Virus record (IMG/VR): IMGVR_UViG_3300042451_000707
Location: 1-64,000 of that record
Direction: 5' to 3' (one strand)
From: a virus
Length of the DNA: 64,000 bases
Shown piece by piece: positions 27,234 through 41,709 of this stretch. Every line of letters begins with the position of its first letter. Position 1 is the first letter of the stretch. The notes under the pieces were generated by a model. It was not told the DNA's origin, ran no database searches, and saw only the letters and a program-made list of their open reading frames with translations. Position numbers and translations under genes: made by a program.

Positions 27234-30200
27234 TTAAATGTTTTCAAACGAAGCACCTGTTGGTGTGATAAAGAATTCAATATCAATAAATTCTAATGCT
27301 TTCGTAGGTTTTAGGTAAATTTTTCCTGTTAATGTATTTCTATCCAAGTCTTCAGGTGATGATGAAACCGTTACACGGAAATCATAAAGACCTCTATCTC
27401 TTCTAATTGAATCTAGAATTGGATTAACACTATCTAAAAATTGTTGTCTAACGATTTGGTCATTTTGTTCAAATAATAATCTTACCGCTACCGCTGAAAT
27501 TAATTTACGAGCTTGAAGTAACAATCTTCTTACATTTAATCTGTTAAGAGCCGTATCAGCAACTTGTAAAGTTTTATTACCCCAAATTACGGTTCCAACA
27601 TCAGAGAAAGTTGCGATAGGGTTAATTCTACCTTGATACAATGTATCTCTATCTGTTTGTGTAAGTTTAACTCTCGCTTTAATTGAATTAACAAGACCTC
27701 TTGTGTAACCCGCTGATGCGAACCAAGGGAATGATATATTATCTGTTAATGCTAAGTTTCTACAAACTTCACCTGTTGGTGGTAAATAAATTTGAGTGTT
27801 ATTTACAGTATCACGAGTTAATATCCAAGGGTAGTAAGTCGCAGTGTAATTAGAGTCAATTCCTGTGTTATCTAAATTATCAACAGCTTCTTGAGGATAT
27901 ATTATAAGTTGAGGGTTTGTTGAATCCGGATTATACATCGGATAATCAGGTGTTGTTGCAATATATACTGAATCCGCTCTTGAGAATTGAACCATATCAA
28001 TAGCCTCTTCCACAAGATTTGAGTTATTTACATAGTCAATACTTGATGTTGCAAAAATATTAATATTTGTTGATTCAGGATTTGAAAATGTTAAAATACC
28101 AAGTAAATAAGCGTAATAATCAGTATTTGCAAAATCTTGATTGTTGTCTTGAACTGTAATTCTTTTAAACAAACCGTCTCCTGTTGCATTTGGATATCTT
28201 GATGATGATGACGCTCCTGCCAAGTATCCTGAAGCCCCTAATTGGAATCTATCTTCATTAGTTCTCCATTCTCTATATATATCCCATCCGTCAAAACCTC
28301 CCGCAAAACATACAGTATATTTTCTTGAATAAATAAAATAATATGGGTTTTCTTGTGTTTGTGGGTCATTTCTAAATTCTGCAACACCACATTCAAATGC
28401 GGTTTCTCCGCTTGATTTAGAACTAATTCCGATTGTTACAACAGTTGCACCTGAATCCATATGGAATCCTTTACTTACCACATTCCAAGGTCTTCCCTCA
28501 ATTGCAGGATTAGTAACCCATCCTGAAGGAGTTTGTTTTCCTTTATAAGTTAAGAATGATTCATCAATACCATATTGTGTTGAAAAACCTAAATAACTTC
28601 GTCTTACGATATCTCCTGCCGATTCTATAGGTCCTCCTCCAGCACTTGCTCCAAATGGTGGATTTGCAATTACTTCACCAGGGAAATAATATTTTGTTTT
28701 AAATTTAGGATAAGGTGATGGGTATTCATCATAACTTAAATACTCTCTTTGAGTATATCCGTAAAATCCACAAGGTAATGCGTCTATCGGTGCCTCATCA
28801 GCCATTTCAACCATTACGTATTTAGAAATCAACGCAAATTCTCCATTAGAAGAACCTATTTTTTTCGCGATGAAATTATTTGACGCCGGGTCCATGTTAC
28901 AATTTGTGAATTTTTCAATTACAATAGGATTTGCATCAGTATCAAAAAAGTTTCTAACAAATACATCAAACGACATATTATTGAATGATAAATTCGCAAT
29001 TGAAACTTTAACTTCAGTATTTGCAGAATCTCCATCAGAAATTGATATGAACTTAAATAATTTATAAACTTTATTACCTCTCAATTCTGAAACCAAATAA
29101 GGTGTTTCCGGTGACTGATATCTTTCTAAATTGTATGCGATTGATGATGATTCTTGACTTCTAGCACTCGGTAATGCGATTAAGTTACAATTCAATCCTC
29201 TCACATATCCTTGGTTATAACCATAATTTAAAGAGTTTAAATAATCTTCTTCAACATAAATAGGGACATCAAATCTTGATTTACCAAAATTATCAACACC
29301 TAAAACTTTTGTTAAATATTTTGATGAAGACGCTAACATTGAAGTCTCAAATGAGAATACTTCATTATCTTTTGTTACACCTGATAATAAAAATGTTGCA
29401 TAAGGTGATTTCGCGATATCCGAATATTGTCCGGTACAAATTAATTGTAAATTGTTTGGTACCCAAGTAGAATTATTATTGTAATCAATACCTACTTGAT
29501 AAACAGGTCCGTGATTGATACTAGTTGAACTATTCTGATATAACGATATACCTCTTGACCGAATAGTTGCAACCACCATATTATTGTATTCACTATACGC
29601 AGTCCCTGTAAATAAATAAGTATTACCTGTTACGGTTCCGGTAAATGTGTTTGGTGAAACAAGTGATAATGTTGATACAGAATAATCAAAAGAATAACCT
29701 GTATAATTTCCTGTCGAAGAACTGAAATTTTCAAATTCAAAATTCGCATAAAACCAAACATCGTTAGAGTCTGATGTTAAATCATTATCTATGAAATCAT
29801 TAACACAACCATATGGATTTTGAATTGAACTATATTGAGAAGTTAATATACTATAATCTGTTTCGGGTATAGCTCCGTAAATTACTGCAGTATTCGCAGA
29901 CAATATAGGAGAATTCATTATGTTACCTAAATAATTATTAAAATCATCTTGTAATGTTGATGTACTCCCGTCTTGTTGTCTATATTGAACGTTTAAATTT
30001 GCTAAAACTTGAGATGGTAAACCCGAACCAAATGTAACAACACCTGATGTTGAATTACCAGTAAATGTTGCGGAAAATGGTGTTCCAACTGAAGGATTAC
30101 CAATTGTAGTTGGGTCAACATTTGCAGTAACACTAATAGACCAAGAAGGTCCTGCATCATATCCGGATAAACCAAGAATTCTTGTCACAAATAATTGATT

Positions 30201-30473
30201 TGATTGTTGTAAATATGATTTAGCAATATATGCGGCCTCATATTTTGGTATTTGAGTATTTACGAATTTAACGGGTTCTGTTCCACCGAAATACGCTTGG
30301 AACTCATCATAATTAGTTATAAAAATCGGTTCAAAGGCCGGTCCTTTAATTGTTTCTCCCACTAATCCTAACGTAGTAACGCCCACACTTTGGGCTACGA
30401 AAGATAAGTCTGTTTCAGATGTATATACACCCGGAGATACGAATACTTTTTGGTTTGCTTGTGCTGTTGCCAT
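27234..30473 (-). CDS. 18: Contractile tail sheath protein, gp18-like (expanded)
   Basis: This is the tail sheath subunit. The N-terminus has the sheath signature FVSPGVYTSE, then TTLGLVGETIKGPAFEP and a YFGG segment. The C-terminal fold, which joins subunits, is recognisable: GVTIWGNKTL-like text (here GTVIWGNKTLQ), LNVRRLLLQARKLI and TGKIYLKPTKALEFIDIEFF. At 1079 aa it is much longer than T4 gp18 (659 aa). The additional residues lie between about 110 and 640 and are Ser/Thr/Asn-rich, probably surface-exposed insertion domains. It is bounded by a promoter-like motif 33 nt upstream and a terminator at its end, so it is probably an abundant monocistronic message. Confidence 0.95.
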   Translation of the reverse strand: MATAQANQKVFVSPGVYTSETDLSFVAQSVGVTTLGLVGETIKGPAFEPIFITNYDEFQAYFGGTEPVKFVNTQIPKYEAAYIAKSYLQQSNQLFVTRILGLSGYDAGPSWSISVTANVDPTTIGNPSVGTPFSATFTGNSTSGVVTFGSGLPSQVLANLNVQYRQQDGSTSTLQDDFNNYLGNIMNSPILSANTAVIYGAIPETDYSILTSQYSSIQNPYGCVNDFIDNDLTSDSNDVWFYANFEFENFSSSTGNYTGYSFDYSVSTLSLVSPNTFTGTVTGNTYLFTGTAYSEYNNMVVATIRSRGISLYQNSSTSINHGPVYQVGIDYNNNSTWVPNNLQLICTGQYSDIAKSPYATFLLSGVTKDNEVFSFETSMLASSSKYLTKVLGVDNFGKSRFDVPIYVEEDYLNSLNYGYNQGYVRGLNCNLIALPSARSQESSSIAYNLERYQSPETPYLVSELRGNKVYKLFKFISISDGDSANTEVKVSIANLSFNNMSFDVFVRNFFDTDANPIVIEKFTNCNMDPASNNFIAKKIGSSNGEFALISKYVMVEMADEAPIDALPCGFYGYTQREYLSYDEYPSPYPKFKTKYYFPGEVIANPPFGASAGGGPIESAGDIVRRSYLGFSTQYGIDESFLTYKGKQTPSGWVTNPAIEGRPWNVVSKGFHMDSGATVVTIGISSKSSGETAFECGVAEFRNDPQTQENPYYFIYSRKYTVCFAGGFDGWDIYREWRTNEDRFQLGASGYLAGASSSSRYPNATGDGLFKRITVQDNNQDFANTDYYAYLLGILTFSNPESTNINIFATSSIDYVNNSNLVEEAIDMVQFSRADSVYIATTPDYPMYNPDSTNPQLIIYPQEAVDNLDNTGIDSNYTATYYPWILTRDTVNNTQIYLPPTGEVCRNLALTDNISFPWFASAGYTRGLVNSIKARVKLTQTDRDTLYQGRINPIATFSDVGTVIWGNKTLQVADTALNRLNVRRLLLQARKLISAVAVRLLFEQNDQIVRQQFLDSVNPILDSIRRDRGLYDFRVTVSSSPEDLDRNTLTGKIYLKPTKALEFIDIEFFITPTGASFENI

Positions 30474-34485: not shown

Positions 34486-36018
34486 ATGAAAAAAACCGAA
34501 AAGAAAATTCAAGAACTTGAAAAAAAGATTCTCGAAAACCACATAGTTGAAGAATCCAAGTTATTGATAACTGAAATGAAAAAAATAGGGATAGAAAAAT
34601 TACCTTACGCCTATTCAGCCTTGAAATCGTTTATCGATGCAGAAACAATGGAAATCCATTATTCCAAACATTATAAAGGATATGTGGATAAACTAAACGC
34701 CGCTTTATCAAAAAAGAAATATGGTGATTTAGATTTGGAAAAAATAATTAAAACAATCAGCCGTTTCGACAAAACTATTAGAAATAATGCCGGAGGTGCA
34801 TTTAATCACGCATTGTTTTGGAATTTCCTGACACCTGAACCAACAAAATTACAAGGAGAACTTTATAAAAAAATCACAAAACAATGGGGAACATTCACCA
34901 ACTTCAAAAAAGAATTTGAAAAACAAGCCAAAGAGCGTTTTGGTTCAGGTTGGGTATGGTTGATTTTAACTTCCAAAAATACATTAAAGATTATGTCTAC
35001 TCCAAACCAAGACAATCCATTAATGAATGTGATTGAAGGTGGGGGATTTCCTTTATTAGGTTTGGACTTATGGGAACATGCTTATTACTTAAAATATAAA
35101 AACAAACGAGACGAATACATTACAAACTTTTGGAAAGTCGTTAATTGGGATTTTGTTACCAAGATGTATGAGATGAAGACAAAAACAAAGTTAATTGAAT
35201 CTGAAATTAAAAAATCTGTTTTATTTGAAGGTCGTTCAGATTATATCAGAATGTGTACAGATGAAGATAACGAATTTTTCCAAAACCTACTTAGTAGAGA
35301 AGAAATAAGGTCAATCTATGGTAAAGGAATTTACCAAGCGTTATTTAAAGTTCCTTGGTTAGAATTTAGAAAAAAAGATTTATCAATCAACAGAATGCAA
35401 GGTTTTTATAAAGATGGGGAAAGACACAATATTAGTTACTTAGCGGGGAACCATAGAGCTTTTTGTATGATTGTTAAAAGTGTTAACGAAATATTAAAAC
35501 AAAGCGGACAACCTAAAATATTTCTCAAAGATAAATCTCCTGAAGAACAAGTAGTAGGGGTTAAAAGATTAATTGATATTTTAGTTAAAAACGCACCAAA
35601 AATATTTGACGAAAACAATCCATTTTTTCAAGCAATCATGACAAACTTAGGACAGAGTATTATAAAGGGAGACAAGGTTGAAAAAGTTAGTGAAATCAGA
35701 TTGTCTAAAAAATTTGGTCGAGAAAATGTCAAAATTGAAAGTGGTTTTGGTTTAGATACGGATGCTTCCGAAGGGTTAGATGGTACTATTAAAATTGGTG
35801 GTAATATATATAAATGTCAAATAAAACCTTATAAAACTTCTTTTATTGAAGATGGTAAACTTGTTGTGTTAACTAGTAGTACTGTTAGTAATTATAAAGT
35901 AGATTTTATGATATTCTCGAATACACAAAATACTTTAGTAATAAAAACCCAAAATACAGAATTAGGGGTTAATACATATATGTTTCCACCTGAAGATTTA
36001 ATTTACACATTAACATGA
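34486..36018 (+). CDS. Mn-type superoxide dismutase fused to a nuclease-like domain
   Basis: This 510-aa protein is a fusion. Residues 38-230 are a complete Mn/Fe superoxide dismutase that would convert superoxide to peroxide and oxygen. LPYAYSALKSFI opens the fold. Ligands H58, H108, D194 and H198 (GLDLWEHAYY) are all present. Gly104 and Gln175 are at the positions that mark the Mn type. A 37-aa Lys/Glu-rich helix precedes it. Residues 240-400 are a helical region of unknown kind. Residues 415-510 resemble a PD-(D/E)XK nuclease core: E418, D432, then QIK (Q445, K447) and later KVDFMIF. No frameshift is seen. A phage SOD is uncommon, and this fusion is unfamiliar to me. Activity and purpose are unproven. 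Confidence 0.85.
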   Translation: MKKTEKKIQELEKKILENHIVEESKLLITEMKKIGIEKLPYAYSALKSFIDAETMEIHYSKHYKGYVDKLNAALSKKKYGDLDLEKIIKTISRFDKTIRNNAGGAFNHALFWNFLTPEPTKLQGELYKKITKQWGTFTNFKKEFEKQAKERFGSGWVWLILTSKNTLKIMSTPNQDNPLMNVIEGGGFPLLGLDLWEHAYYLKYKNKRDEYITNFWKVVNWDFVTKMYEMKTKTKLIESEIKKSVLFEGRSDYIRMCTDEDNEFFQNLLSREEIRSIYGKGIYQALFKVPWLEFRKKDLSINRMQGFYKDGERHNISYLAGNHRAFCMIVKSVNEILKQSGQPKIFLKDKSPEEQVVGVKRLIDILVKNAPKIFDENNPFFQAIMTNLGQSIIKGDKVEKVSEIRLSKKFGRENVKIESGFGLDTDASEGLDGTIKIGGNIYKCQIKPYKTSFIEDGKLVVLTSSTVSNYKVDFMIFSNTQNTLVIKTQNTELGVNTYMFPPEDLIYTLT

Positions 36019-36040: not shown

Positions 36041-37162
36041 ATGTCAGTAATTCCAGAACCGGAAAGGTCAAAAATTTATACAAGAGTAAAACACTTATTG
36101 GGAGCACCAATTAGAAGTGTTGAGATTGAAGATGAAATGATGGATTCATTAATGGAACTATCTATTCAAGATTACGAACAATATATTTTGAATTGGTTAA
36201 TCGATAGTCAATGGGTTAATTTAGTTAATTTGAATATGACTGAAAAGTCTGTTGCAAATGCTTTAATTACTAGGACTATGGATTTTGAACAACAATTTTC
36301 ATATTCATATTCTAAAATCGTAGGCCTACAATCACAAGGCCCTTGGGTATTAAAGAAAGACTACATAATACTTGAACAAAATAAACAAGATTATGAAATA
36401 CCTGCAGGTCGTGAAATTAATGAAGTATTATGGTTTAGTAATCAACCTTGGACAGCATTTGGACTTGGTGGTGTTGGTGGTTTTGGTGGTGTCGGTTTAG
36501 GAGCGAATGAGGCAGGGTTTGCTCAAATGGGATATCAAGGCTCATATTTTATGATGTCCGGATTTGACTATTTGATAAGAATGCAAGAAGCAAATATATT
36601 AAATAGAATACTTGGGGGTTCCCTTACTTATAGAATTACTGCATTACCGGACGGAAAGAAAAATTTACAACTTTATAACGCTCCGGGTAATAACTTTAAT
36701 TGGAGTCAGTATAGTAACTATGTGGGTAAAGCGGTATGGTATTGGTATTATGATACTACACCTGATAGTAGAGCAGATTGTTTAAAGAACAATCCTGACG
36801 TTATTAAATTACCGACAGATGTTCCACTTGAGGAGTTAACTTGGTCTGATTTAAATGTTCCTGCAAAACAATGGGTTAGAAGATGGTTCACCGCATACGT
36901 TAAAGAAACATTGGGTAGAGTTAGAGGAAAGTATAGTGGTAATTTAAAAACACCTGATTCCGAAATCACGATGGATTATACAAGTTTATTAACTGAGGGT
37001 AAAGATGAAAAAACAAAGTTGATGGAAGAACTCACTGGTCCTGAAGGTTGGTTAACAAGATTAAGACCTGAGAAAGTGATGGAGAAAGAAGCATTACTTG
37101 CTGAAAATTTAAACAAACAAATGAAATTTAGAGCAATGCCTCGTCAAATATATGTAATTTAA
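36041..37162 (+). CDS. 13: Neck protein, gp13-like
   Basis: This 373-aa protein has the gp13 neck signature near the start (YTRVKHLLGAPIRSVEIEDE and helical residues after it), where T4 gp13 (309 aa) also opens with an LGAP motif. An unusual glycine-rich stretch (GLGGVGGFGGVGLG, about 146-160) interrupts the middle. The C-terminal half is helix-rich (WVRRWFTAYVKETLGRVRG). gp13 helps close the head and dock the tail with gp14. It lies on the opposite strand from the gp14/gp15/sheath genes, a rearrangement relative to T4. It has its own promoter-like motif. Confidence 0.8.
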   Translation: MSVIPEPERSKIYTRVKHLLGAPIRSVEIEDEMMDSLMELSIQDYEQYILNWLIDSQWVNLVNLNMTEKSVANALITRTMDFEQQFSYSYSKIVGLQSQGPWVLKKDYIILEQNKQDYEIPAGREINEVLWFSNQPWTAFGLGGVGGFGGVGLGANEAGFAQMGYQGSYFMMSGFDYLIRMQEANILNRILGGSLTYRITALPDGKKNLQLYNAPGNNFNWSQYSNYVGKAVWYWYYDTTPDSRADCLKNNPDVIKLPTDVPLEELTWSDLNVPAKQWVRRWFTAYVKETLGRVRGKYSGNLKTPDSEITMDYTSLLTEGKDEKTKLMEELTGPEGWLTRLRPEKVMEKEALLAENLNKQMKFRAMPRQIYVI

Positions 37163-40778: not shown

Positions 40779-40931
40779 ATGAAACCAAGAAAAAAAGAAG
40801 AAGAAAAAAAAGTTAAATTCGCAATTAGTTTAGACCCTAAATTATTTAAACGAATGGAGGATGAAATAATAAATAAATCAGGACTGATTGAAAAATTATT
40901 AAAAGAGTATTATGGAAAAAAAGATTTGTAG
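40779..40931 (+). CDS. Small ribbon-helix-helix-type protein 2
   Basis: This 50-aa frame starts at ATG 40779. After a Lys/Glu-rich N-terminus comes the RHH order: a strand (KVKFAISLDP), helix 1 (KLFKRMEDEII) and helix 2 (SGLIEKLLKEYY). Helix 2 runs on as GKKDL. Its stop lies inside the HNH gene, overlapping it by 20 nt in another frame, so the pair is translationally coupled. Like RHH gene 1 it is preceded by an inverted repeat and the TATTTATA motif. Likely a DNA-binding regulator; target unknown. Confidence 0.65.
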   Translation: MKPRKKEEEKKVKFAISLDPKLFKRMEDEIINKSGLIEKLLKEYYGKKDL

Positions 40932-41709
40932 TAAATGTAAAGAAGAAAAAAATTTATGTGATTTTAATAAATGTTCGAGAAGTAAATTGGGGGTACAATC
41001 TTCATGTAAAGAATGTCGTAGAAAAAATAGAAAAAAAACATTTGAAAAAGATAAAATACGTCATCAGAAATGGAAAACCAATAATAACGATTATGTGAAA
41101 GAATATAACAAAAAGTATTATATTGATAACATTGAAAAAATTAAAGAAACCCAATTAAATTATTACGAAAAAAATAAACAAACTATTAGTAATTGGAGCA
41201 AACATCACTATACCAATAATCGTGAAAAAATTAAGGATAGATGTAAAATCTATAGAATTAAAAATAAAGAAAAAATAAAACTTTACTTCATAGAATACAG
41301 ATTAAATAATCAATTAAAAATTAAAGAAAAAAAGATAAAATTTAAGGAAAAAAATCCAAATTATCATACAGATTATTCTAAAAAACGAAGAAAATTAGAC
41401 ATTAATTACAAATTAACGATAATGGTTAGAGGTAGAGTTAATAAGTTTCTCAAATCAAAAAATATAACAAAAACCAATAAAACATTTGATATCGTTGGTT
41501 GTACTCCCGAATTTCTTAAAGAACATTTAGAACAACAATTCACGGAAGGAATGTCTTGGGATAATCAGGGTAAATGGCACATTGACCACATCATTCCACT
41601 ATCATCAGCAAAAACCGAAGAAGAAATTTATAAACTTTGTCATTATACAAATCTTCAACCACTATGGGCTGAAGATAATTTGAATAAAGGTTGTAAAATA
41701 TTAAATTAA
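40912..41709 (+). CDS. HNH endonuclease (free-standing homing type)
   Basis: This 265-aa protein has an N-terminal zinc-finger-like block (CSKCKEEKNLCDF, then CKECRRK) and a long Lys/Asn-rich helical middle. The C-terminal HNH core contains KWHIDHIIPLSSA and HYTNLQPLWAEDN, with the His/Asn catalytic set. This layout is that of free-standing phage homing endonucleases. It lies on the plus strand beside minus-strand genes and overlaps the RHH gene start. Its stop overlaps the following convergent glycosyltransferase stop by four bases. The coding composition is more A/Lys-rich than the neighbours, consistent with recent arrival. Confidence 0.88.
   Translation: MEKKICSKCKEEKNLCDFNKCSRSKLGVQSSCKECRRKNRKKTFEKDKIRHQKWKTNNNDYVKEYNKKYYIDNIEKIKETQLNYYEKNKQTISNWSKHHYTNNREKIKDRCKIYRIKNKEKIKLYFIEYRLNNQLKIKEKKIKFKEKNPNYHTDYSKKRRKLDINYKLTIMVRGRVNKFLKSKNITKTNKTFDIVGCTPEFLKEHLEQQFTEGMSWDNQGKWHIDHIIPLSSAKTEEEIYKLCHYTNLQPLWAEDNLNKGCKILN

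What the first reader, a model, noticed from the sequence alone, without database searches (positions are those of the whole stretch)
34486..36018. Mn-superoxide dismutase fused to a PD-(D/E)XK-like nuclease domain in a phage
Seen: a complete SOD fold with all four metal ligands (H58, H108, D194, H198) and Mn-type Gly104/Gln175, continuous with about 270 further residues whose end has E418, D432 and QIK (Q445/K447), the order of a PD-(D/E)XK core. Known: Fe/Mn SODs normally stop near 200 aa. Inference: the phage could couple oxidative-stress protection to DNA cutting, or use the SOD as a sensor or targeting module for a nuclease, or deliver it with the virion. The gene has its own promoter-like motif, and I know no described phage protein with this architecture.
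Basis: partly seen in the sequence, partly recalled or inferred. Interest (0 to 1): 0.78.

Follow-up and report, generated by a model that had tools for sequence, protein, structure and literature searches.

The report
Phage superoxide dismutase fused to nuclease
A family of uncultured aquatic phages makes one protein that joins an oxygen-radical-removing enzyme to a DNA-cutting-type domain; it may travel inside the virus head, and relatives swap the DNA-cutting part.

Summary
The fusion is real and conserved. ORF 34486-36018 encodes a Mn-type superoxide dismutase (SOD), a helical part and a nuclease-like domain. All 107 complete SOD-bearing frames among the loci fetched carry the C-terminal part.

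The nuclease reading is right in kind, wrong in detail. A confident model of residues 250-510 (pLDDT 92) resembles PD-(D/E)XK nucleases, best SPARDA DREN and I-Ssp6803I (Z 8.0). E399, D432, Q445 and K447 are invariant in 156 of 156.

Two features go beyond the finding. (L/I)xE triplets, the motif cut by T4 prohead protease gp21, lie on both sides of the SOD in nearly all relatives; a gp21-family protease is found in 10 of 13 related records of at least 127 kb. And phages with nearly identical SOD parts can carry nuclease parts under 50% identical, with the DNA break in or beside the linker holding two triplets.

Best reading (0.42): a head-internal proprotein cut into SOD and an exchangeable nuclease. 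Packaging, cleavage, injection and both activities are inferred. The architecture is deposited (A0A6J5L953, named superoxide dismutase); I found no paper describing it.

The parts
34486..36018 (+). whole gene, SOD-nuclease fusion, 510 aa
   Evidence: ORF list; 107 of 107 complete SOD-bearing frames in fetched loci have the same architecture
34486..34575 (+). leader, residues 1-30, ending in the (L/I)xE triplet at E30 (ITE, codon 34573-34575); candidate capsid-targeting propeptide
   Evidence: E30 with I/L at -2 in 149 of 156; the other 7 have IxE 4-5 residues upstream. E30 adjoins a conserved block M31-I36, so its conservation is not isolated. Propeptide role inferred
34576..35175 (+). Mn-type superoxide dismutase domain, residues 31-230; ligands H58 (34657-34659), H108 (34807-34809), D194 (35065-35067), H198 (35077-35079)
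   Evidence: Pfam, PDB matches, ligands invariant in 156 of 156
35176..35250 (+). linker, residues 231-255, with (L/I)xE triplets ending at E238 (35197-35199) and E248 (35227-35229); candidate protease sites
   Evidence: E238 and E248 in 156 of 156; the only fully conserved columns in 230-251; residues 236-251 under pLDDT 50; cassette breakpoints in or beside this linker
35251..35640 (+). helical part of the C-terminal module, residues 256-385, no known family found
   Evidence: model; barely tested by fold comparison (note); no library hit over a cut-off
35641..36015 (+). PD-(D/E)XK-like nuclease domain, residues 386-510; E399 (35680-35682), D432 (35779-35781), Q445 (35818-35820), K447 (35824-35826)
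   Evidence: structure comparison; E399, D426, D432, Q445, K447 invariant in 156 of 156

Best explanation
The gene makes a head-internal proprotein of a T4-type contractile-tailed phage. Its leader brings it into the prohead core. The phage's S77 (gp21-family) prohead protease cuts after the (L/I)xE triplets and frees a Mn-SOD (about residues 31-238) and a nuclease module (about 249-510) inside the head. The SOD limits superoxide damage to the packaged DNA or in the newly infected cell. The nuclease enters the cell with the DNA and cuts host or competitor DNA; its cassette is exchanged between phages because that target changes. Shown: the fusion, intact SOD ligands, the nuclease-like fold with an invariant active-site set, conserved triplets, a protease gene in most long related records, cassette exchange. 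Inferred: packaging, cleavage, injection, both activities, target.
For: SOD ligands and E399/D432/Q445/K447 invariant in 156 of 156. The same D-QxK residues are catalytic in SPARDA DREN (D41, Q60, K62; PMC12205087, passages), one of the two nearest structures (Z 8.0). T4 gp21 cuts after L/I-X-E, and T4 internal proteins have N-terminal propeptides that target them to the head (PMC9026906, passages). Triplets: E30 149 of 156, E238 151 of 156, E248 145 of 156 with L/I at -2 (the other 11 have M); G, S or A follows E248 in 153 of 156. E238 and E248 are the only fully conserved columns of the linker 230-251. Peptidase_S77 over its cut-off in 4 of 15 and 7 of 11 related records, 10 of 13 of those of at least 127 kb. 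gp23 has INE|A ending at residue 60 in 4 of 4 head clusters read. C-terminal parts swap: of 793 pairs with SOD at least 93% identical, 76 have C-terminal parts under 50% identical; breaks at the linker.
Against: The triplet is not rare. By one criterion (E in at least 98% of rows, L/I at -2 in at least 90%) the fusion has 2 of 5 conserved Glu columns against 8 of 60 in seven neighbouring genes, which by itself is no strong excess; with variable flanks it is 2 of 3 against 1 of 7. The connector, not known to be cut, has two. A triplet also sits at E197 in the SOD core (137 of 156). 11 of 156 have M, not L/I, before E248. Low model confidence is not special to the linkers: 77-82, 299-301 and 420-428 are also under 50, and much of the SOD is modelled poorly. 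The window's own record has neither the protease nor gp23 (a 66-kb fragment), and 3 of 13 long records lack the protease. No proteomics or activity data.
Confidence: 0.42

Rival explanations
1. An uncut two-domain enzyme working in the infected cell. The SOD dimer or tetramer holds nuclease domains together, or protects the cell while the nuclease works on DNA; the (L/I)xE triplets are incidental.
For: The two nearest structures, SPARDA DREN and I-Ssp6803I, act as tetramers of D2 symmetry (PMC12205087, passage); Mn-SODs form dimers or tetramers (recalled). The triplet occurs in other conserved proteins of the phage. Freshwater phage SODs are read as stress genes for the infected cell (PMC6802176, passage).
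Against: It does not explain why E238 and E248 stay invariant in an otherwise variable linker, nor why the nuclease half is exchanged with breaks there.
Confidence: 0.27
2. A homing-type nuclease. The C-terminal module cuts other phages' alleles of its own gene during co-infection, and repair copies its cassette in, using the conserved SOD and connector sequences as homology arms.
For: Nearest fold I-Ssp6803I is a homing endonuclease. Allele replacement with conserved flanks is the pattern such a nuclease would leave. A stand-alone relative exists.
Against: No allele without the nuclease was found among 107 complete frames, while homing elements usually show presence and absence (recalled). 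General recombination plus selection gives the same pattern. The SOD fusion is not needed for homing.
Confidence: 0.14
3. The C-terminal module keeps the fold but is a DNA-binding or structural protein without catalysis.
For: Foldseek finds no PDB match at E <= 0.001; the canonical Glu/Asp before Lys is Gln; the helical part has no known family.
Against: E399, D426, D432, Q445 and K447 are invariant in 156 of 156 although the domain averages 45% pairwise identity; in the alignment with the stand-alone relative all five are kept; Q-x-K is catalytic in DREN.
Confidence: 0.12

Closest known systems
UniProt A0A6J5L953, 'superoxide dismutase', uncultured Caudovirales phage, 501 aa
   Same: Same two-part architecture by structure comparison: 488 columns, 42% identity; nuclease part aligned over 257 columns
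   Different: Named only as SOD; 21% identity over the C-terminal part. I did not have its sequence
Single-domain phage SODs (Pseudomonas phage Callisto and relatives, Vibrio phage 2.275.O)
   Same: Fe/Mn SOD in large phages
   Different: Coding regions of 549 and 570 bases without a nuclease part; 27-31% identity
T4 internal proteins (IPI-III, Alt)
   Same: Leader ending in (L/I)xE in a phage family with gp21-type protease and gp23; diversified cargo (PMC9026906, PMC12373910, passages)
   Different: No known T4 internal protein is an SOD or a nuclease as far as I recall; packaging not shown here; extra sites between two domains
SPARDA DREN nuclease and homing endonuclease I-Ssp6803I
   Same: Nearest folds, Z 8.0 each; D-QxK active site in DREN
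   Different: 12 and 18% identity over 110 and 102 residues; no Argonaute partner and no intron; helical part not matched
Chlorovirus PBCV-1 Cu/Zn SOD
   Same: A viral SOD packaged in the virion (PMC7019647, passages)
   Different: Unrelated Cu/Zn enzyme, eukaryotic virus, no nuclease

Membership tests
Fe/Mn superoxide dismutase, Mn type | Both Pfam SOD domains over cut-off | tested here: met
   PF00081 82.7 bits (cut-off 27), PF02777 135.8 bits (cut-off 20.9)
Fe/Mn superoxide dismutase, Mn type | Three His and one Asp metal ligands, plus Mn-type Gly and Gln | tested here: met
   H58, H108, D194, H198, G104, Q175 in 156 of 156; the assignment of Gly/Gln to Mn type is recalled
Fe/Mn superoxide dismutase, Mn type | Dismutase activity with Mn | not testable with these tools
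   needs enzyme assay
PD-(D/E)XK nuclease superfamily | Fold resembles known members | tested here: met
   VIA-align Z 8.0 to 9qcc_Y (rmsd 4.2, 110 aligned) and 2ost_A (3.1, 102), Hjc 7.7 (3.5, 103); the leading rows are nucleases I know as this superfamily. Moderate Z; no Foldseek E <= 0.001
PD-(D/E)XK nuclease superfamily | Conserved acid, D and (D/E/Q)xK set | tested here: met
   E399, D432, Q445, K447 in 156 of 156
[quoted passage not shown]
   DSSP of the model shows a long helix and strands, but no helix of 4 or more residues between the QxK strand and the later strands
PD-(D/E)XK nuclease superfamily | DNA cleavage | not testable with these tools
   needs assay
T4-type head-internal protein | N-terminal propeptide ending in (L/I)xE | tested here: met
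   149 of 156 at E30, 7 of 156 with IxE 4-5 residues upstream; a sequence match only
T4-type head-internal protein | Phage has a gp21-family (S77) protease | tested here: met
   11 of 26 related records over cut-off, 10 of 13 of at least 127 kb; 0 of 1 in the window's own fragment
T4-type head-internal protein | Present in the virion, processed, injected | not testable with these tools
   needs virion proteomics
Intron-encoded homing endonuclease | Gene lies within a self-splicing intron | not tested
   The module is one open frame with the SOD in 107 of 107 complete frames, which speaks against it; no intron search was run

The most novel reading that the evidence does not exclude
A phage head carries two enzymes made as one proprotein: the prohead protease releases a superoxide dismutase that shields the packaged genome and a fast-exchanging nuclease that is injected to destroy competitor or host DNA. 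It would be a polymorphic injected nuclease with a conserved carrier half and a swapping nuclease half.
Probability: 0.28. Interest if true: 0.88.

Novelty: new variant of a known kind. Interest (0 to 1): 0.64.

Why it matters
Freshwater phage SODs are read as stress-relief genes that protect the infected cell (PMC6802176, passage). If this one is packed in the head and cut free from a nuclease, some phage SODs are virion parts linked to conflict with hosts or other phages. The conserved sites make that directly testable by mass spectrometry, and the swapping cassette points to a nuclease whose target changes.

Tried and rejected
Rejected: the frame join as an assembly error; E418 as catalytic acid; the upstream motif as evidence for a promoter of its own.

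Led nowhere: profile search of the C-terminal part against PDB sequences (best E 0.048, 3lhk, putative DNA-binding protein MJ0014); family libraries gave only weak, scattered hits for the C-terminal part: Pfam MC4 (7 of 27 members, best E 6.6e-5), DUF6602 (12 of 27, 0.0096), EcoO109I (1 of 27, 0.0085); PHROG 5018 without function (11 of 71, 0.0045); PADLOC LmuC (6 of 71, 5.8e-4), PD_DExK (5 of 71, 0.0037), GajB (1 of 71, 2.7e-4); NCBIfam none for the window's C-terminal part. The genome-contig scan for the C-terminal module rested on one peptide pattern and found no relative, so it does not show absence in bacteria. No close relative of the stand-alone homolog L098 was found in viral contigs. 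The connector has one match, at 22% identity, in the phage collection. The likeness of the linker to the N-termini KLTESD...VLSE of small proteins beside the head genes differs in spacing (10 against 13 residues between the Glu), so I do not rely on it.

Limits and dropped rows: the 155 sequences added to the window were chosen for an SOD motif (EHAYYL) and at least 440 aa, so they cannot show SOD-only forms; one search is that test, and there 11 of 118 unique frames run off a contig end and were set aside (8 with C-terminal match, 3 too short to tell). Scans keep the 80 best of 101, 215, 401 and at least 587 relatives, so distant forms are undersampled. Two of nine neighbour genes gave no usable rows and were left out of the background count. 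Rows are related, so the counts are not independent.

Full report
What is there. The ORF at 34486-36018 on the + strand encodes 510 residues. The window is part of a 66,384-base virus record. Of its proteins I scanned 40 against PHROGs: tail sheath, tail tube, baseplate parts, DNA polymerase, helicases and ribonucleotide reductase were found, so it is a contractile-tailed phage. Residues 37-226 carry both Fe/Mn-SOD Pfam domains; the best PDB match is an SOD at E 5e-61.

Is the fusion real? A scan of IMG/VR with the whole protein gave 101 relatives; of the 80 loci kept, 74 match to residue 504 or beyond and 6 stop at or near a contig end. Further scans used the C-terminal part alone (17 loci; the 13 new contigs all carry the SOD), C-terminal alignments (78 loci, with SOD in all 76 new ones; 80 loci, with SOD in 80) and the SOD part alone (80 kept of at least 587 relatives). 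Several of these loci are the same contigs fetched again. Among unique SOD-bearing frames in loci fetched up to, 118 in number, 107 are complete at the 3' end and all 107 carry the C-terminal part. In 14 of 14 long records the only SOD match lies in a frame of 508-525 aa. The gene order is kept: in 96 loci (L082-L084 repeat the contigs of L001, L003 and L004) the helicase upstream is found in 96 and the connector downstream in 88. In the GenBank phage collection 28 records match, all in the SOD part only; many of these look like bacterial sequence, and the two true phage SODs I opened are single-domain.

The C-terminal part. No family library gives a hit over a cut-off. A model of residues 250-510 from 71 sequences has mean pLDDT 92.2 and pTM 0.77. 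Foldseek against the PDB gives I-Ssp6803I first (E 4.9e-3), then an Hjc resolvase (E 0.054), and nothing at E <= 0.001. VIA-align gives SPARDA DREN (9qcc_Y, Z 8.0, rmsd 4.2, 110 aligned) and I-Ssp6803I (2ost_A, Z 8.0, 3.1, 102), then Hjc, HhaI, NhoI, DpnI and RecU, over model residues 139-261. By that tool's own note a Z near 8 is middling; what persuades me is that the leading rows are nearly all one superfamily (a grouping I recall) and that the residues fit. E399, D426, D432, Q445 and K447 are invariant in 156 of 156 fusions; E418 is not conserved. In DREN the catalytic residues are D41, Q60 and K62; D41A and Q60A abolish and K62A impairs activity (PMC12205087, passages). I had no coordinates, so I could not check that the five residues meet in space. 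A stand-alone relative of the whole module, without SOD, lies in a 735-kb phage record; a profile comparison gives 98.7% probability and keeps all five residues.

Candidate protease sites. T4 gp21 cuts after L/I-X-E, and T4 internal proteins carry N-terminal propeptides that target them to the head (PMC9026906, passages). In the fusion: E30 in 149 of 156, always with I or L at -2, the other 7 having IxE 4-5 residues upstream; E238 in 156 of 156 (L/I at -2 in 151, V in 4, M in 1); E248 in 156 of 156 (L/I in 145, M in 11; G, S or A follows in 153). E238 and E248 are the only fully conserved columns in 230-251; E30 instead adjoins a conserved block, residues 31-36. The full-length model is under pLDDT 50 at 26-41 and 236-251, but also at 77-82, 299-301 and 420-428, and its SOD part is poor. 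Background: by one criterion the fusion has 2 of 5 conserved Glu columns in such a triplet against 8 of 60 in seven neighbour genes; among columns with variable flanks, 2 of 3 against 1 of 7. In shuffled leaders a triplet falls in the last ten residues 29% of the time. So the motif statistics are suggestive, not strong; the weight comes from position on both sides of the SOD.

Is the protease there? Peptidase_S77 exceeds its cut-off in 4 of 15 records and 7 of 11 more: 10 of the 13 records of at least 127 kb. Gp23 exceeds its cut-off in 7 of 15. In four head clusters, gp23 carries INE|A ending at residue 60 in 4 of 4, and the protease begins with ILE|(A) in 3 of 4. The window's own fragment has neither gene.

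Cassette exchange. Over all 12,090 pairs of the 156, median identity is 0.76 in the SOD and 0.41 in the C-terminal part. Of 793 pairs with SOD at least 93% identical, 76 have C-terminal parts under 50% identical and 84 fall in different C-terminal clusters. I compared five pairs codon by codon. In L015/L004, L002/L012 and L002/L029 DNA identity is 0.97 at residues 221-230, 0.63-0.67 in the next ten and about 0.5 or less soon after; in L242/L251 it falls at 241-250 (0.90 to 0.60 to 0.33); in L015/L029 after about residue 248-250 (0.93 to 0.60). Connector DNA is 88-91% identical again in the three pairs measured. So the module is replaced as a unit, with breaks in or next to the linker that holds E238 and E248.

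Origin. Of the 80 nearest cellular SODs kept (a capped list), 73 come from Bacteroidota by my reading of the record titles, at up to 55% identity. A Bacteroidota host is an inference.

How it most likely works. A head-internal proprotein cut into SOD and nuclease (0.42); rivals are an uncut enzyme of the infected cell (0.27), a homing-type nuclease that replaces alleles of its own gene (0.14) and a non-catalytic module (0.12). That the module is an active nuclease I would put at about 0.75, virion packaging at about 0.55. Nothing here measures activity, packaging or cleavage.

Novelty. Freshwater phage SODs (PMC6802176, passage), a virion-packaged viral SOD (PMC7019647, passages) and injected, fast-diversifying T4 proteins (PMC12373910, passages) are known. 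The architecture is deposited under the name superoxide dismutase (A0A6J5L953). Searches, in open-licence PMC papers only, listed no paper whose title or abstract describes an SOD-nuclease fusion in a phage. I call it a new variant of a known kind.

Noticed in passing
window 36041-37162: The connector downstream (PHROG 211, head-tail adaptor) also has conserved (L/I)xE triplets, at E329 (LLTE before G) and E355; either it too is cut or the motif is partly coincidence.
   Followed up: partly
window 40912-41709: A 265-aa ORF with paired-Cys and HIDHI-type sequence, HNH-like by eye, has relatives in 15 of 96 loci at different places and on either strand, as expected of a mobile homing-type endonuclease gene.
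   Followed up: no
L098:4737-5606 (LR756501.1, 735 kb): A stand-alone relative of the C-terminal module without SOD in a very large phage record.
   Followed up: partly
UniProt A0A8D9CCA0 (1113 aa, uncultured marine phage): A much longer protein whose predicted structure contains the same C-terminal module (TM 0.78 on the query); its other parts are unknown to me.
   Followed up: no
L111:577-1041, L113:99-575, L114:1556-2023: Small proteins near the head genes begin with a shared KLTESD...VLxEQ sequence that could be a capsid-targeting propeptide of this phage group.
   Followed up: no
window 27234-30473: The tail sheath protein is 1079 aa, with PHROG sheath matches only in about residues 860-1077, so it seems to carry large extra domains.
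   Followed up: no
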